Below, piece by piece: positions 52,742-64,000 of a DNA stretch of 64,000 bases. Both the position numbers and the translations under genes were made by a program. The notes under the pieces were generated by a model that was not told the DNA's origin, searched no databases, and saw nothing but the letters and a program-made list of their open reading frames with translations. Source of the stretch: Cumulibacter soli (lineage in GTDB: Bacteria; Actinomycetota; Actinomycetes; Mycobacteriales; Antricoccaceae); assembly GCF_004382795.1 (NCBI RefSeq), contig NZ_SMSG01000001.1, positions 1 to 64,000 of the forward strand, read 5' to 3'. The number at the start of each line of letters is the position of its first letter. Within the stretch, counting starts at the first letter, position 1.

Positions 52742-53995
52742 TCAGATGGGGTCGTCGTCCTGCTCCCGAGGACGCCTGCGCTGACCGAGAATGCGCTGTT
52801 CATCCTGCATCTGCCGCATTTCCTCGTCACTCGCGATATCGAGCCCGCGGCCCCCACCCGAAGGGCGTAATCGCGGTTCACTTCCGGGCGGATCGACGGT
52901 GATCGCAGCGTCCGCATTACCGGTGGCACGGTCACTCATCACCCGCCGAAGCATCGCGATAACCATCCCGACACCAACGCCGATTACTGCGGCGATGATC
53001 AACCGCGCCAGCCAATCCGGCCCGCCGTGCTCAAGTTGCGAACGGGTCAGCACCGTGACATCCGAAGACCCTTGAACTGCCGCGAGCGCCCCCGCTCCGC
53101 CCAATAAGTACGGCGCGGACTCGTCGCCACTGCGGCGCAACGCTCGAACGCCCAATAGACACAAACCGAGCACCGCCAGCGCCGGTACGGCGGCCGACAC
53201 CAGAATGAAGGAGAACTCGCCCTGATACTCGTCCTGCGGCAACGGCGAAATCACAGCTTGTGCCACGGCCAGCACCGCCAGCACGCCACCGGCAAAAGCT
53301 ATGACCATCCGCCAGTTGCGCAGCACGCCACCGACGATCACCGCTATCGCCAGCACGACGACCACGATCCACCACGGCGCGGCCTGCTGAGGCATCCAGC
53401 GCAATTCGCCGGTGATCGTCGATTCAGGCTGATCGCCGTACTTCGCACTGATCGCCCACTCGGCAATGACCAGATGCTCGCTGCTGGGATCCGCGGTGAC
53501 GGCCGGCGGCGGATCGGGTGACATCCAGTGGATTCGATGATCGTGCCACCGGTACACGCCCTCGTCGGAGACCTTCTCCCATACCGGCTCACCGTCACCG
53601 AGATCATCCACAAGGTGGTCGGGAACCTTCTCCGGGGCCCCGTACAGCGTCTCGTTCAGGTAGCCGGCCTGCGATTCGGTATTGACCCACACACCGTCCG
53701 CGCTGACCTTCAAGTAAGGGTCGCGATCGCCGGGTTCCTTGTGCTGGTAGCCATAGATGATCAGCGGCGTCGACGAGGTATTGCGCACCTCGATCCGATC
53801 AGCGCTATCAGTCAGCGTGAACGACACGCCAGGCATCTGCGGCGTTACGCTCAAAATTTCGCCGCGCCAGTTCGAAGGCTCGCGTCCACCACCAAAATGT
53901 GCGGAAGCCGCGTCGGCGCCGCCGACGGTCACACATACGGCAGCGATCACGACGACGAGCGTGTTCGCGAGTCGCCGAATCGCAGCGCCTAGCAC
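52742..53995 (-). CDS. Copper-operon membrane protein of unknown function
   Basis: About 417 residues. An N-terminal signal segment (LANTLVVVIAAVCVTVGGADAASA) is followed by a secreted beta-rich region (about 30-230, with HDHRIHWMSPD-like His motifs) and four hydrophobic segments. The tail is charged (EEMRQMQDEQRILGQRRRPREQDDD). No known family recognised. It lies 20 bp after the SCO1 gene and is probably the last gene of the copper-delivery operon. Start: GTG 53995; the open frame extends to 54076 over SCO1. Confidence 0.7.
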   Translation of the reverse strand: MLGAAIRRLANTLVVVIAAVCVTVGGADAASAHFGGGREPSNWRGEILSVTPQMPGVSFTLTDSADRIEVRNTSSTPLIIYGYQHKEPGDRDPYLKVSADGVWVNTESQAGYLNETLYGAPEKVPDHLVDDLGDGEPVWEKVSDEGVYRWHDHRIHWMSPDPPPAVTADPSSEHLVIAEWAISAKYGDQPESTITGELRWMPQQAAPWWIVVVVLAIAVIVGGVLRNWRMVIAFAGGVLAVLAVAQAVISPLPQDEYQGEFSFILVSAAVPALAVLGLCLLGVRALRRSGDESAPYLLGGAGALAAVQGSSDVTVLTRSQLEHGGPDWLARLIIAAVIGVGVGMVIAMLRRVMSDRATGNADAAITVDPPGSEPRLRPSGGGRGLDIASDEEMRQMQDEQRILGQRRRPREQDDDPI

Positions 53996-54015
53996 GGCGA
54001 ATGCACCCGCATCGC

Positions 54016-54648
54016 CTATTTCACGCCGATCGGCAGGTCGTGCAGAATGTCCTCCGCGCTCGTGTTGGCCAACCACGCGACATGCGACTTGTTCGCGGAG
54101 CCGTAGTAGATCGCCATCGTCGAGTGCGTCTTGCCGCCGTCCTCGGCAACCGGCACACCAGCGGCCTCCTGCGCGGCCTCAACCTCATCGAGCGAACCGG
54201 TCAAGCCGATGTACTTCACCGGCAAATCGGCGTCGAACTTTGCGAGGTAATCGCCCAACACCGCAGGCTTGTCGGTCGCCGGGTCCGTCGTCACGAACAC
54301 CACCTGCAACTCGGACTTGATCTCGTCCGGAGCCTGCGACAGCGCCGAAGACACCTGCCCCATAATCAGCGGGCATACGTCCGGGCAATGCGTGTAGCCG
54401 AAGTACAGGATCGTCGGAGTGTCCGCAGTCTGCGCCCCGAAGTCATATGTATCGCCGTTCTGGTCAGTCAGCGTGAACTCCGGCCGTGGCGGCTCGGGCT
54501 GCATTTCGATACCCCGATACGCGGAGTTGTCGTTGACCGCAGTCACGTCGGCAACGCCACCTCCGGAATCCTCTGCCGCACTACACCCCGTGAGGGCGAC
54601 CAGTGCGGCCGCGAGCAGGGCGGCGACGGTACGAATTCGGCGATACAT
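54016..54648 (-). CDS. SCO1/SenC-family copper chaperone lipoprotein
   Basis: A 210-residue thioredoxin-fold protein with a lipobox ALTGC (Cys22). The copper motif is YFGYTHCPDVCP, with the two cysteines of CxxxC, and VFVTTDPATDKP and a late His complete the usual set. It delivers copper to the Cu(A) centre of cytochrome c oxidase on the outside of the membrane. Neighbours are a PCu(A)C protein and CopC-CopD. Confidence 0.93.
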   Translation of the reverse strand: MYRRIRTVAALLAAALVALTGCSAAEDSGGGVADVTAVNDNSAYRGIEMQPEPPRPEFTLTDQNGDTYDFGAQTADTPTILYFGYTHCPDVCPLIMGQVSSALSQAPDEIKSELQVVFVTTDPATDKPAVLGDYLAKFDADLPVKYIGLTGSLDEVEAAQEAAGVPVAEDGGKTHSTMAIYYGSANKSHVAWLANTSAEDILHDLPIGVK

Positions 54649-55219: not shown

Positions 55220-56930
55220 CGATCTCCCCCTCGTCCGTCACGGCCCCGAAACCCGGCTCGGTGAACGTAATCGACACGGTCCAGGTGCCATTGATCGGCA
55301 GGTCTACGGCGTCCGCTATGAAATGCCCCTGCCCGACGTTGCGCGCGTTGAGGTCGATGGGGCCCACCTGCGCGCCCGTGTTCTCGATGGTCACCGCGAC
55401 CTCGTCCACCCCATCGGCCAGCACATTGTCGCGATCGAAGAGATAGAGGTGCAGCGTGTTCACACCGGCACGGCCGGGATCCAGGCTGAGTTGGGCGGTG
55501 TAACTGTTGTCGAACGTCACGATCGTGTCCTTCGCGACCGAGTACGTATCTTGTGCCGGCGGGGTCGCCACCAGCACCGCGGCCACGGCGATCGCCGCAG
55601 CGCCCGCGACCGCCTCGGTGAGCACCGTTCGCCGCAACCGCCGAGTCGCCGCAGACACACCAGAGGCTGCGCCCGCACCCTCACCGCTCGCCTGAGTCGC
55701 ATCAGCTGAGTCGTCGGGTGTGGACGCCGCAAGTTGCTCCGAAGCTGTGGCACGCCGCAGCACCCAGCGGCGCGACAACGCTGCCGCGGCCAACGCCACG
55801 ACTAACAGCGCGGCCTTGCCGATCAGTAACCAGCCGTACGTAGTACCGAACAGCGCCCCGAACGACCCGACCCGTACGAAAGCCTCGATCACGCCAGTGA
55901 GCACCAACGCGGCCACCAGCCAGACAGCGACACCAGAGAACCGAGTGACTACCGCTCGCTGCTCACGCGACTCCAGCGCGGATCCTCGCCGTAACACCAC
56001 CCGCAACAAGAGCACCAAACCGCCGGTCCAAACCGCTGCCGCCACCAGGTGCACCGCGGTCAACGGGACACTAGTCCACGACATGCCGTCGGCGATCGCG
56101 TGCCCGCTCGCCGCATGAGTCACCGCAATAGCCGCCACCCCACTCAGCGCCGTCCACGCGAGTGGACGCCGATCGCGCTCGGCGTTGAACCATTCCCAGA
56201 TCAGTACCCCGAGCACGCCCAGCAGCATCAGTCGCAGCGCGAGCATCTGCCCCAGCACCGTTTCCAGGGTCGCCGACATCAGCGTCGGATCGAACATCGC
56301 GCCCAATCCGCGCCCCGCCGCGTACGGCCCCTGCAGTAACCCGCCGAGGACCGCGCCCGCGAGCGCGAGATCGAAGCCCACCCAGGCCCATCGCCGGGTT
56401 CGCGGCTGCGCACGCAAGGCCGGATCCAGCAGTCCCATCAGCAGTACGCCGGCCAACAACGCGATTCCGGCGTATCCCAGCCAACGCACGAGCGGGTACG
56501 CCACCGACAGGGCCAGATCGTCGGACGACCCGCCGATCTGTGTGCCGCCCGCCGAGATCTCCGGCGGCGCGGCGTCCCCGACCGCGAACGCCACGCCACC
56601 CGATACGGGGTGCGAATCCGCGGACACGATCCGGTAACTAATGATGTATCCGCCGTCCGGCAGACCCGCCTCTAACTGGACGGTGGCTTCCTCGCCCGAA
56701 ACCGTGACGTTGCCGGTATCGACACGCTCGCCGTCGTCATCAATCACGCGCAGGTAGCCGGGGCCGAGCGAGACCTCCTCTGTGAAGGTCAGCGTGACCT
56801 GCGTCGGCGCCTCCTCGAGGACGTCCCCGTTACCTGGCGATGACGTCACCAGCGTCGCGTGCGCGAAGGCCGCCTGAGCTCCGCCGAGCAACACGATGAT
56901 GGCGAGCAGTGCGGTGATAACGCCGCGCAT
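55209..56930 (-). CDS. CopC-CopD fusion copper-import protein
   Basis: About 573 residues. The signal peptide ends AQAAFA and the mature protein begins HATLVTSSPGNG, so the N-terminal His is the copper ligand typical of CopC. The CopC domain ends near residue 125 (YRIVSADSHPVSGGVAF). Then a CopD membrane domain of about eight helices with SGHAIADG and SVPLTAVHLVAAAVWTGG histidine motifs, and a C-terminal beta-rich domain. Start taken as ATG 56930; GTG 56942 is near. The upstream frame overlies the anti-sigma gene. Confidence 0.9.
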   Translation of the reverse strand: MRGVITALLAIIVLLGGAQAAFAHATLVTSSPGNGDVLEEAPTQVTLTFTEEVSLGPGYLRVIDDDGERVDTGNVTVSGEEATVQLEAGLPDGGYIISYRIVSADSHPVSGGVAFAVGDAAPPEISAGGTQIGGSSDDLALSVAYPLVRWLGYAGIALLAGVLLMGLLDPALRAQPRTRRWAWVGFDLALAGAVLGGLLQGPYAAGRGLGAMFDPTLMSATLETVLGQMLALRLMLLGVLGVLIWEWFNAERDRRPLAWTALSGVAAIAVTHAASGHAIADGMSWTSVPLTAVHLVAAAVWTGGLVLLLRVVLRRGSALESREQRAVVTRFSGVAVWLVAALVLTGVIEAFVRVGSFGALFGTTYGWLLIGKAALLVVALAAAALSRRWVLRRATASEQLAASTPDDSADATQASGEGAGAASGVSAATRRLRRTVLTEAVAGAAAIAVAAVLVATPPAQDTYSVAKDTIVTFDNSYTAQLSLDPGRAGVNTLHLYLFDRDNVLADGVDEVAVTIENTGAQVGPIDLNARNVGQGHFIADAVDLPINGTWTVSITFTEPGFGAVTDEGEIDVS

Positions 56931-56971: not shown

Positions 56972-57643
56972 TCACCGCGGCAGCAGCCCCCGAACGGCCA
57001 CTGGCTGCAGCGCAGAGCGCGGCGACGGCATGACTCGGCGACGGCGCATCATCCACGCCAGCGAGGCGAGCAAGACGAGACCGGCCGCGATTAATGCGTG
57101 CTCCAGCACCCGCGCGACAGACACTTCGGATGCCAGCAGGTCACGCACACTGGCGTACCCGAGTATCGCCACCAGCCCACTGACCATCGGCAGTACGGCG
57201 TACGCGATGTTCGGTCGCAGTGCCGCAGTGGCGAACCCGATACCGATCGCGACGCTCCATGCACCTAGCTCGGCAGCCGTGTGACCGGCGGAATCGTCGT
57301 GCGCGAACAAATGCAGTACGCCGACGAACACCTGCACAAGGGCTGCGGCCATGAGTGCGGCGCGCGCCAGGCTCATCCCCAGCGACGGCCGGGGTACGTC
57401 TCCCAAGATCGCCGTCAAGATCCGTTCGGCGAGGTCCGGTACGGCGTCCGCCGACTGCATCCGCAGCGGCCGTTGGATATCCGGGACGATCCGTGCCCAC
57501 TCGGCGCACGATGGGCAGGCCGCCAGATGCACTGCGGTCTCGACGGGCGCTTTTTCGCCATCGAACTGTGCGGACAACGCCTCGCGGTATACCGCGCAGG
57601 TCACATCAAGCTGCGCATTACCCTGGTCATCGTTACGTCGCAT
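56972..57643 (-). CDS. Membrane anti-sigma factor with zinc-finger domain
   Basis: A 223-residue protein. The N-terminal zinc-type anti-sigma motif is HLAACPSCAEW (H-x3-C-x2-C) near residues 39-46, and four hydrophobic segments occupy 90-205. It should hold the divergent SigC-like sigma factor inactive until a signal at the membrane is sensed. ATG 57643 has AAGGAGGG just before. It opens the operon CopC-CopD, PCu(A)C, SCO1, membrane protein. Confidence 0.82.
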   Translation of the reverse strand: MRRNDDQGNAQLDVTCAVYREALSAQFDGEKAPVETAVHLAACPSCAEWARIVPDIQRPLRMQSADAVPDLAERILTAILGDVPRPSLGMSLARAALMAAALVQVFVGVLHLFAHDDSAGHTAAELGAWSVAIGIGFATAALRPNIAYAVLPMVSGLVAILGYASVRDLLASEVSVARVLEHALIAAGLVLLASLAWMMRRRRVMPSPRSALQPVAVRGLLPR

Positions 57644-57666
57644 GAGCCCTCCTTGCCACACGGTGA

Positions 57667-57695
57667 TAGTCGGGCTTGCCGGCGGCAAAGTTCCC
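57667..57695 (-). promoter_or_regulatory. Candidate ECF promoter for the anti-sigma/copper operon
   Basis: Reading toward the anti-sigma gene: GGGAAC, 17 bases, CGACTA. This fits the GGAAC/CGTC-type ECF -35 and -10 elements and is 24 bases before the start codon. If the adjacent sigma factor uses it, the operon is under its own sigma control. Confidence 0.5.
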
Positions 57696-57715
57696 ACGCG
57701 ATTGGTCAACGTCCG

Positions 57716-58267
57716 ATGAACACGCAGCCCAGCCACGCTGAGGTGACGCGATGGGCGTTACAGGCGGGCGCGGGCGATATGACGGCGATGGCGCTGTTCA
57801 TCCGTGCCACCCAGGCTGAGGTGTGGCGGGTCTGCGCGCATCTCGGCAACCGGTGGGCCGCCGACGACCTCGCGCAGGAGGTTTACCTGCGAGCGCACCG
57901 CTCATTGCCGCGCTTCCGCGGAGACTCCTCGGCCCGGACGTGGCTGCTCACCATCGCGCGGCGCGTGTGCGCGGACCATGTGCGCGAGCAGCAGCGCCGA
58001 CCCGCGCCAGCCCCTATTGACGAGATCACCGATCCCGCCGATCCCGCAGCCGATCACGCAGGGCACGGCGCGCTTCGCGATTTGCTCGAGCGGCTCGACG
58101 AGGACCGCAAAGAGGCCTTCGTGCTGACGCAGGTGCTGGGCTTGAGCTATCAGGAAGCCGCCGAGGTCAGCGGTTGCCCGATTGGGACGATCCGCTCGCG
58201 CGTCGCCCGCGCCCGCGAGGATCTCGTGGCCGCGGTCCGTGCCGCGGACGACGCCGCGCAGTCGTAG
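57716..58267 (+). CDS. ECF RNA polymerase sigma factor, SigC-like
   Basis: A 183-residue ECF sigma factor. Sigma region 2 is FIRATQAEVWRVCAHLGNRWAADDLAQEVYLRAHRSLPRF...SSARTWLLTIARRVCADHVRE and region 4 is LDEDRKEAFVLTQVLGLSYQEAAEVSGCPIGTIRSRVARAREDLVA. It resembles mycobacterial SigC throughout, including SSARTWLL and the CPxGTIRSRVARAR tail; SigC has been connected with copper limitation. ATG 57716 begins MNTQPSHAEVTRWALQAG. It diverges from the anti-sigma gene and lies just before three Asp-repeat genes with similar promoters. Confidence 0.9.
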   Translation: MNTQPSHAEVTRWALQAGAGDMTAMALFIRATQAEVWRVCAHLGNRWAADDLAQEVYLRAHRSLPRFRGDSSARTWLLTIARRVCADHVREQQRRPAPAPIDEITDPADPAADHAGHGALRDLLERLDEDRKEAFVLTQVLGLSYQEAAEVSGCPIGTIRSRVARAREDLVAAVRAADDAAQS

Positions 58268-58349
58268 CACGCTCGCCGCGCACTCATATCACGATCATTC
58301 GTGCCCGGGCGCTCCGGAAAAATTCCTAGAAAAAGTTTTGAACCCTTGA

Positions 58350-58378
58350 GGAACCGCTCGGCGAGGGTGACCATCAAT
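58350..58378 (+). promoter_or_regulatory. Weak ECF-like promoter of first Asp-repeat gene
   Basis: GGAAC at 58350 and ATCAAT 18 bases on, in the same place as the stronger motifs before genes two and three. The -10 part deviates from CGTC. The AAAAGTTTT string shortly upstream also occurs before gene three (60181). Confidence 0.35.
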
Positions 58379-58462
58379 ATTGATGCACAACCTAAACGGG
58401 TGCACACAAGAGGCCCCGAACCCCTCACACGCAATTGAGCGAACTAAACCTAGGAGATCATC

Positions 58463-59110
58463 ATGGAGTACTACGACACCGATGGCGATGGCGTTGCTGA
58501 CTCGGTTGGCTACGACACCAACGGCGACGGTCTGATCGACACCTACGAGATCGACACCAACGGCGACCAGTACGCCGACACTGTCGTGACCGACTTCGAC
58601 AACGACGGCTACGCAGACTCCGGCTCCGCCGACGTCTCGGCTCCGGGCGGCGACTACTACGCCGGTGGCGAGACCACCTCCGACGGCGGCACCACGTTCG
58701 ACTCGGATGGCGACGGCGTTGCTGACCAGGTTGGTTACGACACCGACGGCGACGGCGTACTCGACACTTACAACATCGACACCAACGGCGACCAGTGGAC
58801 CGACACCACGGTCACGGACTGGAACGGCGACGGTATCGCCGACAGCGGCTCGGCCACGGTCTTCCAGAACGAGTACGACACCGGCCAGAACTCCGGCAGC
58901 ACCTCCAGCGACGGCGGCAGCGCCAGCAGCAGCTCCGGCGGCCCGAACTACTACGACACCAACGGCGACGGCGTCGCCGACCAGATCGGCTACGACACCG
59001 ACGGAAACGGCGTTGACGACGTGTACGAGATCGACACCGATGGCGACGGGTACGTCGACACCACCGTCACCGACTACAACGAGGACGGCTGGTCGGACCA
59101 GCAGGTCTAA
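58463..59110 (+). CDS. Asp-rich DxDxDGxxD repeat protein 1
   Basis: A 215-residue, extremely acidic protein made of three blocks of about 53 residues, each with four DTDGDG/DTNGDG loops spaced 12-13 residues apart (for example YYDTDGDGVADSVGYD). The blocks are joined by Gly/Ser-rich linkers. The loops look like calcium-binding sites of the thrombospondin type 3 or EF-hand-like kind. There is no signal peptide, membrane segment or sorting motif, so location is unclear. Followed by a strong terminator. Function unknown; calcium or other metal binding is inferred. Confidence 0.8.
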   Translation: MEYYDTDGDGVADSVGYDTNGDGLIDTYEIDTNGDQYADTVVTDFDNDGYADSGSADVSAPGGDYYAGGETTSDGGTTFDSDGDGVADQVGYDTDGDGVLDTYNIDTNGDQWTDTTVTDWNGDGIADSGSATVFQNEYDTGQNSGSTSSDGGSASSSSGGPNYYDTNGDGVADQIGYDTDGNGVDDVYEIDTDGDGYVDTTVTDYNEDGWSDQQV

Positions 59111-59131
59111 CCTCCACACTCAGCACGATGT

Positions 59132-59160
59132 AAAGGGCCAGGCGATTCGCCTGGCCCTTT
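59132..59160 (+). terminator. Terminator after Asp-repeat gene 1
   Basis: AAAGGGCCAGGCG and CGCCTGGCCCTTT form a 13-bp stem with a three-base loop, ending in TTT. It lies 21 bases after the stop codon. Confidence 0.88.
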
Positions 59161-59228
59161 ATGTTTGTCCCAGCCGACGTCTGCCACTAGCAAAATCCCC
59201 ACCGGCGGTAAAGGATCAGTTATCTCGC

Positions 59229-59257
59229 GGAACCTTTTAGCGCCACCACACCGTCTG
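59229..59257 (+). promoter_or_regulatory. ECF promoter candidate of Asp-repeat gene 2
   Basis: GGAACC at 59229-59234, 17 bases, CGTCTG at 59252-59257. The downstream leader contains GCACCTCAACCGCC, matching GCAACACCTAAACCGC before gene 3, so the promoter and leader are duplicated with the gene. Confidence 0.65.
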
Positions 59258-59333
59258 CACCTAGGCAGCACCTCAACCGCCACCGCGGCGGATTCATTAC
59301 TACCGCACATCAATATCCTGCGAGGAGATTCCC

Positions 59334-60098
59334 ATGGCCAGCAACGCGAACGGGCCTGTTAACGCAACCGGTTACGACACCGACGGCGACGGTGTCGTCG
59401 ACACCGATGGCTTCGACACCAACGGGGACGGCGTTCTCGATTCCTCCGACGGCGCGTACACCGAGCCGTCGCCGACCGTCACCGGCTCGGCGACGTCGTA
59501 CGACACCGACGGCAACGGGGTGACCGACACGATCGAGTACGACACCGACGGCGACGGACTGGTCGACTACATCGAAGGCGACCTCAACGAGGATGGAATT
59601 GTCGACGCCGTCGCCTACGACACCAATGGCGATGGCGTCATCGACTACGCCGAGGCCGACACCGACTACAACGGCGTCACCGACACGTACGCCGAGGACG
59701 TCGACGGCAATGGCGTCATCGACGCCGACGAGGTCTTCCTCGATGCCGACGAGAACGGCGTGATCGACACTGAAGAAGGCACGATCGACGCCTCCTATAC
59801 CGAAACCACAACGACCAGTACGACGACTACCAGCGCGGACGGCGCCAGCAGCACCACCGTCAGCGAAACATCCACCGCCACCTACAGCGACTACTACGAC
59901 GCCGACGGAGACGGATACGCCGAAGCCCAGGACATCGACTCCAACGGCGACGGATACGTAGACATCATCACCTACGACACCGACGGCGACTACGTCCAAG
60001 ACACGGCCGTGGTCGACTCCGACTACGACGGCATCGCGGACACCGTCCAGTACGACTACGACCAGGACGGATACGTCGACACCGAAACCAGCTTGTAA
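59334..60098 (+). CDS. Asp-rich DxDxDGxxD repeat protein 2
   Basis: A 254-residue acidic protein. Residues 1-45 and 55-160 contain DTDGDG, DTNGDG and DENGVIDTEEG loops; a Thr/Ser-rich linker (TETTTTSTTTTSADGASST) divides this from a C-terminal block ending VQYDYDQDGYVDTETSL. No signal peptide. ATG 59334 follows GAGGAG. It is a close paralogue of protein 3, with a 112-base stretch that differs at only three positions. Its own ECF-type promoter precedes it. Confidence 0.8.
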   Translation: MASNANGPVNATGYDTDGDGVVDTDGFDTNGDGVLDSSDGAYTEPSPTVTGSATSYDTDGNGVTDTIEYDTDGDGLVDYIEGDLNEDGIVDAVAYDTNGDGVIDYAEADTDYNGVTDTYAEDVDGNGVIDADEVFLDADENGVIDTEEGTIDASYTETTTTSTTTTSADGASSTTVSETSTATYSDYYDADGDGYAEAQDIDSNGDGYVDIITYDTDGDYVQDTAVVDSDYDGIADTVQYDYDQDGYVDTETSL

Positions 60099-60108
60099 GA
60101 CCGCATTC

Positions 60109-60145
60109 ACAGGGGCGCGACCGGGTGACCGGTACGCGCCCCTGT
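60109..60145 (+). terminator. Terminator after Asp-repeat gene 2
   Basis: ACAGGGGCGCG and CGCGCCCCTGT pair, with a further ACCGG/CCGGT stem inside, making a long hairpin 11 bases after the stop. The outer arm is shared with the terminator after gene 3. Confidence 0.85.
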
Positions 60146-60217
60146 TGCATGTCGGCTGCGGGGTCTAGCACCTTCTGCACAAAAGTTTTATATTGCCTAA
60201 AACCTTCGTTATCCTGC

Positions 60218-60246
60218 GGAACCTTTAGTTGGCGTTCACACGTCAG
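60218..60246 (+). promoter_or_regulatory. ECF promoter candidate of Asp-repeat gene 3
   Basis: GGAACC at 60218-60223, 17 bases, CGTCAG at 60241-60246. The -35, spacing and start of the -10 repeat those before gene 2, and GTTATC lies just ahead of both. Confidence 0.65.
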
Positions 60247-60319
60247 CACTAGTGCAACACCTAAACCGCTACGGCGGACCTTTTATATAACGCGTATAAA
60301 ACTCTTCAGGAGAAGACTC

Positions 60320-61099
60320 ATGTCCAGCTACGAAGGCAACACGGCAAACACCTCCAGCAGCGAACCGACGGTCACCGGCTCCGCGACCGCCTACGACACC
60401 AACGGCGACGGCATCACCGACGAGGTGCGTTACGACACCAATGGCGACGGGTACGTCGACTACATCGAGGCGGACACCAACGGTGACGGCATCGTCGATT
60501 ACGTCGAAGTAGACACCAACGGCGACGGCATCACCGACCAACTGGCCTCGGACACGAACGGTGACGGCATCATCGACACCGTTGAATACGACACTGATTA
60601 CGACGGCGTCGCTGATTACGCCGAAAGCGACACCGACGGCAACGGCATCATCGACACCTACGTATACGACACCGACGGTGACGGGGTTGCCGACACCGTT
60701 CTGACCGACGCCAACGAGAACGGTGTGATCGACTCCGACGAGGGCAAGGTCAACGCCTCCTACACCGAAACCTCGACGGTCAGCACCACCACGACCAGCG
60801 CGGACGGAACCTCAACTACCGTCAGCGAAACGACCTCCGCCACCTACAGCGACTACTACGACGCCGACGGAGACGGATACGCCGAAGCCCAGGACATCGA
60901 CACCAACGGCGACGGATACGTAGACGTCGTCACCTACGACACCGACGGCGACGGAGTGCAGGATTCCGCGCTCGTCGATTCTGATTACGACGGCATCCCC
61001 GATACCGCGTACATCGACACTGATGGTGACGGGGTTGCCGACACCGTGCAGTACGACTACGACCAGGACGGTTACGTCGACACCGAAACGAGCCTGTAA
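60320..61099 (+). CDS. Asp-rich DxDxDGxxD repeat protein 3
   Basis: A 259-residue acidic protein with the same plan as protein 2: a first block of DTNGDG loops (for example YDTNGDGITDEVRYDTNGDG), DANENGVIDSDEG, a Thr/Ser linker (TETSTVSTTTTSADGTSTT), and a C-terminal block ending DYDQDGYVDTETSL. No signal peptide or anchor. ATG 60320 follows CAGGAG. Its promoter, leader and terminator are near copies of those of gene 2, so whole transcription units were duplicated. Confidence 0.8.
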   Translation: MSSYEGNTANTSSSEPTVTGSATAYDTNGDGITDEVRYDTNGDGYVDYIEADTNGDGIVDYVEVDTNGDGITDQLASDTNGDGIIDTVEYDTDYDGVADYAESDTDGNGIIDTYVYDTDGDGVADTVLTDANENGVIDSDEGKVNASYTETSTVSTTTTSADGTSTTVSETTSATYSDYYDADGDGYAEAQDIDTNGDGYVDVVTYDTDGDGVQDSALVDSDYDGIPDTAYIDTDGDGVADTVQYDYDQDGYVDTETSL

Positions 61100-61111
61100 A
61101 CCTCAATCCCC

Positions 61112-61150
61112 ACAGGGGCGCGTACCGGGAAACCCGGTACGCGCCCCTGT
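61112..61150 (+). terminator. Perfect 18-bp-stem terminator after Asp-repeat gene 3
   Basis: ACAGGGGCGCGTACCGGG, loop AAA, then its exact complement. Thirteen bases after the stop codon. It also faces the end of the convergent MmcQ-like gene. Confidence 0.88.
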
Positions 61151-61634: not shown

Positions 61635-64000
61635 ATGAGTTCCAAGGCCGCCGCCACCTCCGTGTCCGCCACCCACCCCGCCGACAGCCACGAAACAATC
61701 AGCGTCGTCGGCGCCCGGGAGAACAACCTCAAGAACGTCAGCATCGACATCCCGAAGCGGCGCCTGACCGTGTTCACGGGGGTCTCCGGTTCGGGCAAGA
61801 GTTCGCTGGTGTTCGACACCATCGCCGCCGAGTCGCAGCGGATGATCAACGAAACCTACAGCGCCTTCGTACAAGGATTCATGCCGAACCTCGCTCGACC
61901 GGACGTCGATCACCTGGACGGACTCACCACCGCGATCATCGTCGATCAGGAACGGATGGGGGCTAATCCGCGCTCGACGGTCGGTACGGCGACGGACGCG
62001 AACGCGATGCTGCGGATCTTGTTCAGCAGGCTCGGCTCCCCCAGCCTCGGCGCGCCGAACGCGTACTCCTTCAACATCCCCACGGTGCAAGGTAGTGGAG
62101 CGATCACCGTACAGCGCGGCGACAAGACGAAGGCGGAGAAAGCGACGTTCACCCGCCTCGGCGGAATGTGCCCGCGGTGCGAAGGCATGGGTGCGGTCAA
62201 TGACTTCGACATGACGGCGCTGTACGACGATGAGAAGTCGTTACAGGACGGGGCGCTGACCGTCCCCGGTTACAGCATGGACGGCTGGTACGGCCGCTTG
62301 TTCCGCGGCGCCGGATTGCCGATGGACAAGCCCATCCGCTCGTTCACCAAGAAGCAGATGCACACGCTGCTGTATTCGGAGCCGCAGAAGATCAAGGTGG
62401 ACGGCGTCAACCTGACGTACGAAGGCGTCATCGGCAAGATCCAGAAGTCGATGCTGTCCAAAGACCTCGACTCGATGCAGCCACATATCCGTCGATTCGT
62501 CGAACGCGCCGTCACGTTCCAGACCTGCCCGGAATGCGGCGGGACCAGACTCGCGGCCGAAGCTCTCGGCTCAAAGATCAACGGTAAGAACATCGCCGAG
62601 TTGTGCGCGATGCAGATCAGTGACCTCGCCGAGTGGGTGCGCGCCGAACTCACGGACGCATCCGTCGCGCCGTTGGTGAAGGGGCTTCAGCACCTGCTGG
62701 ACTCATTCACCCAGATTGGTTTGGGGTACCTGTCGCTGGAGCGTCCGGCGGGCACGCTGTCTGGCGGTGAAGCGCAGCGCACCAAGATGATCCGCCACCT
62801 TGGGTCCTCGCTGACCGACGTCACCTACGTTTTCGACGAACCGTCCATCGGACTGCATCCGCACGACATCGATCAGATGAACGGCCTACTGCAACGCCTG
62901 CGCGACAAGGGCAACACCGTGCTGGTCGTCGAGCACAAACCCGAGATGATCGCGATCGCCGACCACATCGTCGACCTCGGACCGGGCGCGGGAACCGCCG
63001 GCGGCACGATCTGCTTCGAAGGCGACCTCAACGGTCTGCGCGCCAGCGATACGACCACCGGCCGCCACCTGGATGACCGCGCAGCAGTCAAGTCCGAGGT
63101 ACGAGAATCCGGCGATTCACTGCAGATCCGAGGAGCAGCGACTCACAACCTGCAAAAGGTTGATGTCGACGTACCGCTCGGGGTGCTGTGTGTGGTCACC
63201 GGCGTCGCCGGTTCGGGCAAGAGTTCGCTGATACATGGATCGGTCGCGACCCGCGAGGACGTCGTGGTCGTCGATCAGTCGGCGATCAAGGGATCACGGC
63301 GCAGCAATCCGGCGACGTACACCGGATTGCTCGAGCCGATTCGTAAGGCGTTCGCGAAGGCCAACGGCGTCAAACCCGCGCTGTTCAGTTCCAACTCCGA
63401 GGGCGCGTGTCCGACGTGCAATGGCGCGGGCGTGATCTACACCGACCTCGGTGTGATGGCCACGGTCGAGTCGACCTGTGAGGACTGCGGCGGCAAGCGT
63501 TTCCAGCAGGAGGTGCTGCAATACACCTTTGGCGGCAAGAACATCGCCGAGGTGCTCGCGATGTCGGTCGCCGAGGCCGAGGCCTTCTTCGCAGACGGGG
63601 ATGCCAAAACGCCTGCGGCGTACAAGATTCTCGACCGGCTGGAGGATGTCGGGCTCGGATACGTGACCCTCGGTCAGCCCCTAACCACGCTGTCCGGTGG
63701 TGAGCGCCAGCGGCTGAAGCTCGCCGCGCAGATGGCGGAGAAAGGCTCCATCTACGTACTCGACGAACCGACGACCGGTCTCCACCTCGCGGATGTCGAG
63801 CAGCTGCTGGGGCTGCTGGACCGCCTGGTTGATTCGGGCAAGTCCGTCATCGTGATCGAGCACCACCAAGCCGTGATGGCGCACGCTGATTGGATCATCG
63901 ACCTCGGCCCGGGCGCCGGTCACGAGGGCGGGAAGGTGGTATTCGAAGGCACCCCGGCGCAGCTGATCGCCGATGCCTCGACGCTCACCGGTAAGCACCT
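61635..64000 (+). CDS. UvrA-like ATPase, truncated by the window end
   Basis: At least 788 codons. Two ATPase modules: Walker A GVSGSGKSSL near residue 50 and GVAGSGKSSL in the second half, with signatures TLSGGEAQRTKM and TLSGGERQRLKL and Walker B motifs ending DEPSIGLHP and DEPTTGLHL. Four zinc-type CxxC pairs are CPRCEG, CPECGG, CPTCNG and CEDCGG. The length is that of short UvrA paralogues (about 760-800) lacking the UvrB-binding region, found beside drug-resistance genes or in damage tolerance. ATG 61635 or 61629 is the start; no ribosome site is seen, so it may be leaderless. Confidence 0.9.
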   Translation, partial: MSSKAAATSVSATHPADSHETISVVGARENNLKNVSIDIPKRRLTVFTGVSGSGKSSLVFDTIAAESQRMINETYSAFVQGFMPNLARPDVDHLDGLTTAIIVDQERMGANPRSTVGTATDANAMLRILFSRLGSPSLGAPNAYSFNIPTVQGSGAITVQRGDKTKAEKATFTRLGGMCPRCEGMGAVNDFDMTALYDDEKSLQDGALTVPGYSMDGWYGRLFRGAGLPMDKPIRSFTKKQMHTLLYSEPQKIKVDGVNLTYEGVIGKIQKSMLSKDLDSMQPHIRRFVERAVTFQTCPECGGTRLAAEALGSKINGKNIAELCAMQISDLAEWVRAELTDASVAPLVKGLQHLLDSFTQIGLGYLSLERPAGTLSGGEAQRTKMIRHLGSSLTDVTYVFDEPSIGLHPHDIDQMNGLLQRLRDKGNTVLVVEHKPEMIAIADHIVDLGPGAGTAGGTICFEGDLNGLRASDTTTGRHLDDRAAVKSEVRESGDSLQIRGAATHNLQKVDVDVPLGVLCVVTGVAGSGKSSLIHGSVATREDVVVVDQSAIKGSRRSNPATYTGLLEPIRKAFAKANGVKPALFSSNSEGACPTCNGAGVIYTDLGVMATVESTCEDCGGKRFQQEVLQYTFGGKNIAEVLAMSVAEAEAFFADGDAKTPAAYKILDRLEDVGLGYVTLGQPLTTLSGGERQRLKLAAQMAEKGSIYVLDEPTTGLHLADVEQLLGLLDRLVDSGKSVIVIEHHQAVMAHADWIIDLGPGAGHEGGKVVFEGTPAQLIADASTLTGKH

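What the first reader, a model, noticed from the sequence alone, without database searches (positions are those of the whole stretch)
56972..61150. SigC-like sigma factor flanked by copper-delivery operon and three Asp-repeat genes
A SigC-like ECF sigma gene and its divergent anti-sigma lie between a copper-delivery operon (CopC-CopD, PCu(A)C, SCO1) and three tandem genes for very acidic DxDxDGxxD proteins. Two of the three have GGAACC-N17-CGTC elements (59229, 60218), and GGGAAC-N17-CGACTA precedes the anti-sigma operon. Seen directly: order, motifs and spacing. Inferred: one sigma regulon that ties copper supply to unusual metal-binding acidic proteins. I know of no described system with this combination.
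Basis: partly seen in the sequence, partly recalled or inferred. Interest (0 to 1): 0.8.

Follow-up and report, generated by a model that had tools for sequence, protein, structure and literature searches.

The report
Copper sigma locus beside acidic genes
A bacterial copper-supply control gene sits next to three genes for extremely acidic, probably calcium-binding repeat proteins, but comparison with relatives suggests a different stress switch controls the acidic genes, so the proposed copper link is probably a coincidence of position.

Summary
In detail: order, motifs and spacings are as described. The joint reading, one sigma regulon tying copper supply to acidic proteins, is not supported.

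Two promoter types are present. GGGAAC-N17-CGACT(A), the SigC type, lies at 11 of 13 sigC-like loci: before an anti-sigma candidate in 10, before a copper-type ATPase gene in one. No acidic gene read has it.

The acidic genes carry GGAAC-N17/18-CGTC: 7 of 10 in the family (0.02 expected by shuffling) and 6 of 22 elsewhere (0.14 expected). One relative without SigC and CopC-CopD keeps three acidic genes with this promoter. Among sigma loci scanned, only SigM has it, in 5 of 5 genomes. The acidic genes are therefore most likely SigM targets lying beside sigC; only the first is fixed there (3 of 3 genomes of the genus), and its -10 is CATC.

The proteins have no signal peptide, 12-15 DxDxDGxxD loops, 0-2 Lys/Arg, no Cys or His: probably hard-cation (Ca2+) binders, not copper proteins.

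Neither motif is enriched genome-wide; the case rests on position and conservation. Sigma assignment is inferred from sequence only.

The parts
52742..54076 (-). protein of the copper operon without known family, same order in relatives
   Evidence: tblastn matches in L076, L077, L078, L085, L086, L090; no Pfam match
54016..54648 (-). SCO1/SenC copper chaperone
   Evidence: Pfam PF02630, 88 bits
54668..55219 (-). PCu(A)C copper chaperone
   Evidence: Pfam PF04314, 85 bits
55209..56930 (-). CopC-CopD fusion
   Evidence: Pfam CopC 84 bits and CopD 66 bits; start codon at 56930 chosen by eye
56972..57643 (-). candidate membrane anti-sigma with HxxxCxxC (ZAS-type) motif
   Evidence: tblastn relatives at 11 of 13 sigC-like loci, itself included; HxxxCxxC by regex here and in 8 other loci; no anti-sigma profile matched
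57667..57695 (-). SigC-type promoter GGGAAC-N17-CGACTA before the anti-sigma/copper operon
   Evidence: one exact match in the genome; conserved
57716..58267 (+). SigC-like ECF sigma factor
   Evidence: NCBIfam PRK09649 SigC 158.5 bits and PRK12535 183.1 bits, both under cut-off
58350..58375 (+). promoter-like GGAACC-N16-CATC of acidic gene 1 (departs from CGTC)
   Evidence: same form in the three genomes of the genus
58385..58395 (+). leader string GCACAACCTAA of acidic gene 1 (lead only)
58463..59110 (+). acidic gene 1: 215 aa, 12 DxDxDGxxD loops, no Lys/Arg/Cys/His, no hydrophobic N-terminus
59135..59157 (+). perfect inverted repeat behind acidic gene 1, possible terminator
   Evidence: by eye; not listed
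59229..59255 (+). SigM-type promoter GGAACC-N17-CGTC of acidic gene 2
59265..59275 (+). leader string GCAGCACCTCA of acidic gene 2 (lead only)
59334..60098 (+). acidic gene 2: 254 aa, 13 loops, no Lys/Arg/Cys/His
60110..60145 (+). inverted repeat behind acidic gene 2, possible terminator
   Evidence: by eye; not listed
60218..60244 (+). SigM-type promoter GGAACC-N17-CGTC of acidic gene 3
60254..60264 (+). leader string GCAACACCTAA of acidic gene 3 (lead only)
60320..61099 (+). acidic gene 3: 259 aa, 15 loops, 2 Lys/Arg, no Cys/His; 61-62% identical to gene 2
61113..61149 (+). inverted repeat behind acidic gene 3, possible terminator
   Evidence: by eye; not listed

Best explanation
Two independent modules lie side by side. 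Module 1: a SigC-like ECF sigma whose divergent membrane zinc-type anti-sigma candidate is co-transcribed with the copper-delivery genes from a SigC promoter (GGGAAC-N17-CGACTA). When usable copper is short (inferred from SigC of M. tuberculosis and C. glutamicum), the sigma is freed and raises CopC-CopD, PCu(A)C and SCO1 for cytochrome oxidase assembly, together with its own inhibitor. Module 2: three single-gene units for cytoplasmic, Asp-rich 13-residue-repeat proteins, each from its own GGAAC-N17/18-C[G/A]TC promoter. These are most likely transcribed by SigM, encoded elsewhere (G000:C5, with an anti-sigma and trxB behind it), as part of an envelope/redox or stationary-phase response. The products bind many Ca2+-type hard cations and act as a cation buffer or hydrated filler. 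Shown: gene order, promoter classes, their conservation, protein make-up. Inferred: which sigma reads which promoter, the signal, ion binding and function.
For: SigC type: site at 11 of 13 sigC-like loci, 10 before an anti-sigma candidate and one (L088) before a copper-type P-type ATPase gene in a genome whose SigC passes the curated cut-off. Of 12 sites in five family genomes, three are these anti-sigma sites and three precede a PepSY_TM, a CopC and a Dyp peroxidase gene. Acidic genes: GGAAC-N17/18-CGTC in 7 of 10 family genes (expected 0.02) and 6 of 22 others (expected 0.14); no SigC-type site before any acidic gene read. In G004 no SigC (best match 36%, the SigM orthologue) and no CopC-CopD was found, yet three acidic genes have that promoter. 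Of the sigma genes, all 64 of four genomes and 6 of 20 of G003 were scanned with flanks: GGAAC[CT]-N16-18-CGTC stands at a sigma gene only for SigM, in 5 of 5 genomes. SigM: 287 and 281 bits, cut-off 190. The same promoter type precedes a WXG100 gene in G002; esxE/esxF and most ESX-4 genes are reported SigM targets (PMC8092274, passages). No Cys/His in the three proteins.
Against: No expression data. GGAAC/CGTC is a generic ECF promoter. Neither motif is clearly enriched genome-wide: GGAACC-N16-17-CGTC 84 sites against 70 reversed controls in G001-G004, SigC type 12 against 13 in five genomes. Acidic gene 1 of this genus has CATC, so its sigma is the least certain, and it is the gene fixed beside sigC. 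SigC and SigM share the ppe1-nrp operon in M. tuberculosis, raised as an open question in PMC7924339 (passage), so cross-recognition is possible. The -35 at the SigM locus overlaps conserved last codons of sigM, so only its -10 is independent evidence. Spacing differs by one base (N17 at SigM, N18 at the family's acidic genes with CGTC). 16 of 22 acidic genes of other families lack the element.
Confidence: 0.66

Rival explanations
1. One reading: SigC drives both the copper operon and the acidic genes as one copper/metal regulon.
For: Acidic gene 1 lies directly behind sigC in 3 of 3 genomes of the genus; both promoters have a GGAAC -35; SigC and SigM targets overlap in M. tuberculosis (PMC7924339, passage).
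Against: No SigC-type site before any acidic gene read (window, L076, L077, L080, L081, L082, L092; 27 of 28 locus stretches, the 28th having no gene with 4 loops); G004 keeps acidic genes while no SigC or CopC-CopD was found there; in G003 sigC and the acidic gene lie on different contigs; no Cys or His in the three proteins.
Confidence: 0.12
2. The acidic genes are read by an ECF sigma other than SigC or SigM that shares the GGAAC/CGTC promoter.
For: The genome has 18 sigma region 2 matches; the element is generic for ECF sigmas; the family's acidic genes use N18 where the SigM locus uses N17; not every ECF need regulate itself.
Against: At the sigma genes scanned (64 of 64 in four genomes, 6 of 20 in G003) only SigM has the exact element.
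Confidence: 0.16
3. Acidic gene 1 alone has been drawn into the SigC circuit in this genus, by its changed -10 (CATCAA) or by read-through from sigC, while genes 2 and 3 remain SigM targets.
For: Its -10 is CATC in G000, G001 and G002, where it sits behind sigC, but CGTC in G003 and G004, where it does not; the intergenic stretch is 195 bases.
Against: CATC matches CGTC at 3 of 4 bases and CGACTA poorly; it keeps GGAACC.
Confidence: 0.15

Closest known systems
SigC (ECF36) of Mycobacterium tuberculosis and copper acquisition
   Same: SigC-like sigma tied to copper supply genes; the SigC-type site precedes a copper-type P-type ATPase gene in a genome with a SigC over the curated cut-off, as SigC raises ctpB in M. 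tuberculosis (PMC7924339, abstract and passages).
   Different: Here a membrane anti-sigma candidate and CopC-CopD/PCu(A)C/SCO1 genes are attached; M. tuberculosis sigC is called monocistronic with no anti-SigC factor identified (PMC7924339, passage) and is placed among sigmas without an anti-sigma (PMC8999054, passages).
SigC of Corynebacterium glutamicum
   Same: ECF SigC linked to the respiratory chain; its regulon is said to be activated by copper deprivation (PMC7337898, passages).
   Different: Known target there is the cytochrome bd operon; the gene neighbourhood and promoter consensus were not compared here.
SigM regulon (esxE/esxF, ESX-4 genes) of mycobacteria
   Same: Same sigma by NCBIfam, neighbours read by eye as murJ and trxB; same promoter type before the SigM anti-sigma, acidic genes and one WXG100 gene.
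   Different: The acidic genes of this window are not near esx genes; the mycobacterial SigM consensus (GGAAC/CGTC) is recalled, the paper was not held.
Rv3906c-type Asp/Gly-rich protein of M. tuberculosis
   Same: 169 aa, 23.7% Asp, connected with pcnA and Rv3902c-Rv3904c (PMC6114228, abstract and passages). In 4 of 4 genomes of genus g9 (probably mycobacteria, inferred) an Asp-rich gene of 162-169 aa follows a poly(A) polymerase-type gene (by Pfam in L026, by eye in the other three) and has GGAAC-N17-CGTC 35 nt before the start.
   Different: Has Lys/Arg and Cys/His; shorter; homology beyond the repeat motif not shown; Rv3906c itself was not compared.
EF-hand / thrombospondin type 3-like DxDxDG calcium repeats
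   Same: DxDxDGxxD loops; EF-hand Pfam matches over cut-off for acidic genes 2 and 3 as whole proteins.
   Different: Mostly 13-residue spacing, no hydrophobic N-terminus, almost no basic residues; a 4-repeat block is predicted as short strands every 13 residues, no helices.

Membership tests
SigC / ECF36 | NCBIfam equivalog score (PRK09649 cut-off 219 bits) | tested here: not met
   158.5 bits; the best match in G010 reaches 254.8. Hence 'SigC-like'.
SigC / ECF36 | Sole strong match in a genome that holds a true SigC, with the same promoter type beside both | tested here: met
   one match in G010 at E 1.4e-51; GGGAAC-N17-CGACT before a copper-type P-type ATPase gene
SigC / ECF36 | No cognate anti-sigma | tested here: inconclusive
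   relatives of the anti-sigma candidate at 11 of 13 loci, the window's own included, HxxxCxxC in 9; binding to the sigma not tested
SigM-dependent genes (acidic genes) | Promoter of the type found at sigM | tested here: met
   genes 2 and 3 exact apart from one base more of spacing; gene 1 with CATC
SigM-dependent genes (acidic genes) | Transcription depends on SigM | not testable with these tools
   needs RNA or in vitro transcription
SigC-dependent genes (acidic genes) | GGGAAC-N16-18-CGACT promoter | tested here: not met
   none upstream of the acidic genes read
EF-hand / TSP3-type calcium repeats | Pfam EF-hand over cut-off | tested here: inconclusive
   gene 2: EF-hand_5 and EF-hand_6 over cut-off; gene 3: EF-hand_5 over; gene 1: none; no single stretch passes on its own
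EF-hand / TSP3-type calcium repeats | Fold | tested here: inconclusive
   52-aa block pLDDT 84.7, strands every 13 residues; no significant PDB match
Copper-binding proteins (acidic genes) | Cys, His or internal Met ligands | tested here: not met
   0 Cys, 0 His, 1 Met each

The most novel reading that the evidence does not exclude
Signal-less, Asp-repeat proteins with few or no basic residues are a conserved output of SigM in several actinobacterial families, in probable mycobacteria as the gene behind pcnA (Rv3906c type), so that SigM would control a cytoplasmic calcium/hard-cation buffer, perhaps with a leader element as a second control. The adjacent SigC module would in turn hold the missing anti-SigC factor, a membrane zinc-type protein co-transcribed with copper import genes.
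Probability: 0.3. Interest if true: 0.65.

Novelty: new variant of a known kind. Interest (0 to 1): 0.45.

Why it matters
It separates two ECF circuits that sit side by side and gives each a testable promoter rule. It proposes an anti-sigma for SigC-like factors, for which none is reported in the papers seen, and adds a possible new class of targets, Asp-repeat proteins, to the SigM circuit. It also shows that motif plus adjacency is not enough to assign a regulon without relatives that lack one half.

Tried and rejected
One SigC regulon for copper and acidic genes: not supported by promoter class and by G004. Copper binding by the acidic proteins: unlikely, no Cys or His. Mobile or phage origin of acidic gene 1: no phage match; on plasmids 17 Rhodococcus/Prescottella records, none covering 80% of the query, all under 60% identity. 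Acidic gene 1 as a general actinobacterial gene: at E 1e-30 found in 5 of 298 genomes of the order, all five of the window's family (273 genomes without a match are not listed one by one). Homology of all DxDxDG proteins: not claimed, as repeats of this make-up match across phyla. Fold: gene 1 whole gives pLDDT 49; the 4-repeat block has no PDB match with E under 2.9 and no Z of 5 or more among 36 chains, so the fold is left open. Solved relatives by sequence: none at E 0.1. MoxR-type ATPase gene: SigM-type site in 4 of 5 genomes (not seen in G003, where 15 of 23 sites were read), but a GATAATG- or GATACTG-like -10 follows in three of the four, so it is not counted as firm. The gene behind the acidic gene in L026/L027 I first took for EsxF; Pfam says DUF2563, so I dropped that. 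Sigma-70 promoters: none found. Leader string: its pattern was drawn from the sequences it was scored on, and two of four anti-sigM leaders also reach 7 of 9, so it is a lead only. One acidic gene of another family (L017) has a hydrophobic N-terminus, so the set is not uniformly signal-less.
Full report
Observation. The window is the first 64 kb of contig 1 of a 3.94 Mb, 20-contig genome. The genes, motifs and spacings of the finding are present as written. The sigma gene scores as SigC-like but below the curated cut-offs (158.5 of 219 bits for SigC, 183.1 of 290 for PRK12535). The copper genes are CopC-CopD, PCu(A)C and SCO1 by Pfam. The anti-sigma candidate has no anti-sigma profile match but an HxxxCxxC motif.

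The acidic proteins. Gene 1 has 215 residues, 12 DxDxDGxxD loops and no Lys, Arg, Cys or His; gene 2 has 254 residues, 13 loops and none of these either; gene 3 has 259, 15 loops, two Lys/Arg and no Cys or His. The loops recur mostly every 13 residues. There is no hydrophobic stretch (highest 15-residue Kyte-Doolittle mean 0.56), hence no signal peptide. Genes 2 and 3 are 61-62% identical and look like a tandem duplication. All acidic matches of the own genome lie at this locus. A 4-repeat block is predicted with pLDDT 84.7 as short strands every 13 residues; the whole of gene 1 is predicted poorly. With carboxylates as the main ligands, Ca2+-type ions are the likely partners; that is inference.

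Distribution. A search with gene 3 in 61 genomes finds matches in 26. A profile of gene 1 and four orthologues matches 5 of 298 genomes of the order at E 1e-30, all five of the window's family. The orthologue of gene 1 lies directly behind sigC in 3 of 3 genomes of the genus (G000, G001, G002). In G003 the sigC-like genes and the acidic gene are on different contigs. In G004 the best sigma match is 36% identical and is the SigM orthologue, and no CopC-CopD match was found, yet gene 1 and a pair of tandem acidic genes are present. G004 is one contig, 99% complete.

Promoter class 1. GGGAAC-N16-18-CGACTA occurs once in the own genome. At 13 sigC-like loci from 12 of the 15 genomes searched, a site [GC]GGAAC-N16-18-CGACT precedes an anti-sigma candidate in 10 (eight divergent and adjacent with HxxxCxxC; L090, 1.1 kb away, with it; L083 on the same strand, candidate by tblastn) and a copper-type P-type ATPase gene in one (L088). 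L079 has none; L086 has one only behind sigC. The ATPase call rests on its first 400 residues: HMA and E1-E2 over the Pfam cut-off, copper-type NCBIfam models best but below cut-off. L088's sigma passes the SigC cut-off, and SigC raises ctpB in M. tuberculosis (PMC7924339, abstract and passages). Of 12 exact sites in the five family genomes (reversed control 13), three are the anti-sigma sites, three precede a PepSY_TM, a CopC and a Dyp peroxidase gene, six give no clear target. So this is most likely the SigC promoter.

Promoter class 2. Across 32 acidic genes read from 29 stretches (genes with at least 4 loops and a start; matches without a stretch were not read), GGAAC-N17/18-CGTC stands within 200 bases of the start in 7 of 10 family genes (expected 0.02 from dinucleotide shuffles) and 6 of 22 genes of other families (expected 0.14). 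The three family genes that miss it are the gene 1 copies of the window's genus, which have GGAACC-N16-CATCAA. All six outside the family use N17; in 4 of 4 genomes of genus g9 the -35 begins 35 nt before the start codon (for L030 with the upstream start), which suggests leaderless transcripts. The 16 other genes (f4, f10, f12, f15, f16 and one of f3) lack it. Genome-wide the motif is not clearly enriched: GGAACC-N16-18-CGTC 46 against 39 in the own genome, GGAACC-N16-17-CGTC 84 against 70 in G001-G004.

Which sigma reads class 2. The five family genomes have 84 sigma region 2 matches. All 64 of G000, G001, G002 and G004 and 6 of 20 of G003 were scanned with their flanks. GGAAC[CT]-N16-18-CGTC stands at a sigma gene only at one locus, in 5 of 5 genomes, at the junction of a sigma and its anti-sigma; one further hit in the second sigC stretch of G003 (L079) lies more than 2 kb from the sigma. 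The sigma is SigM by NCBIfam (287 and 281 bits for G000 and G004, cut-off 190), with genes that I read by eye as murJ and trxB around it. Its -35 overlaps the conserved last codons of sigM, so the -10 at constant spacing is the independent part. The same element precedes a MoxR-type ATPase gene in 4 of 5 genomes and a WXG100 gene in G002. A published discussion states that esxE, esxF and most ESX-4 genes are SigM targets in M. tuberculosis (PMC8092274, passages). The mycobacterial SigM consensus is recalled by me as GGAAC-N16-18-CGTC; the paper was not held. Rv3906c (169 aa, 23.7% Asp, connected with pcnA; PMC6114228, abstract and passages) resembles the g9 genes in length and place; its sequence was not compared.

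A second shared string. Behind the -10 of the family's acidic genes a GCANCACCTNA-like string (at least 7 of 9 fixed positions) stands at offset 8-9 in 7 of 10 and at 16 in an eighth; MoxR leaders score 5-6, but two of four anti-sigM leaders also reach 7. The pattern was derived from the same sequences, so this is a lead only.

Reading. The locus is best seen as a SigC copper module with its own anti-sigma candidate, beside separately transcribed acidic genes of the SigM promoter class. The link between copper and acidic proteins is not supported. What remains of interest is the anti-sigma candidate for a SigC-like factor and the recurrence of signal-less Asp-repeat proteins under a SigM-type promoter in four families (f1, f3, f7, f14).

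Literature. Ten searches of the held open-access library were made. None of the rows listed (15 per search at most) names acidic DxDxDG proteins under SigM or SigC, or an anti-sigma for SigC with CopC-CopD; subscription papers were not searched.

Noticed in passing
window 58385-58395, 59265-59275, 60254-60264: A GCANCACCTNA-like leader string 8-9 bases behind the -10 of 7 of 10 acidic genes of the family, with small palindromes just before it in the window (by eye); possible operator or RNA element.
   Followed up: partly
L193 2905-2930; L194, L195, L196, L145: SigM-type promoter at the sigM/anti-sigma junction in 5 of 5 genomes, its -35 overlapping the last codons of sigM.
   Followed up: yes
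L116, L214, L218, L276: GGAACC-N16-CGTC before a MoxR-type AAA ATPase gene in 4 of 5 family genomes, in three followed by a GATAATG/GATACTG-like -10.
   Followed up: partly
L287, L211: GGAACC-N16-CGTC shortly before an HSP90-like reading frame (by eye) in G003 and G004, 53% identical; could lie in coding sequence.
   Followed up: no
L026, L027, L029, L030: Asp-rich gene behind a poly(A) polymerase-type gene, in L026 and L027 before a DUF2563 gene, with a promoter placed for a leaderless transcript.
   Followed up: partly
L271 1501; L267 1501; L264 1501: SigC-type sites before PepSY_TM, CopC and Dyp peroxidase genes: possible further SigC copper targets.
   Followed up: partly
window 61638-64000: UvrA-like ABC ATPase gene (named by eye) running off the window end, unrelated to the finding.
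   Followed up: no
G003:C1:204640-205170: A second SigC-like sigma (61% identical) without a SigC-type site nearby and with a weak SCO1 match in the fetched stretch (L079).
   Followed up: no
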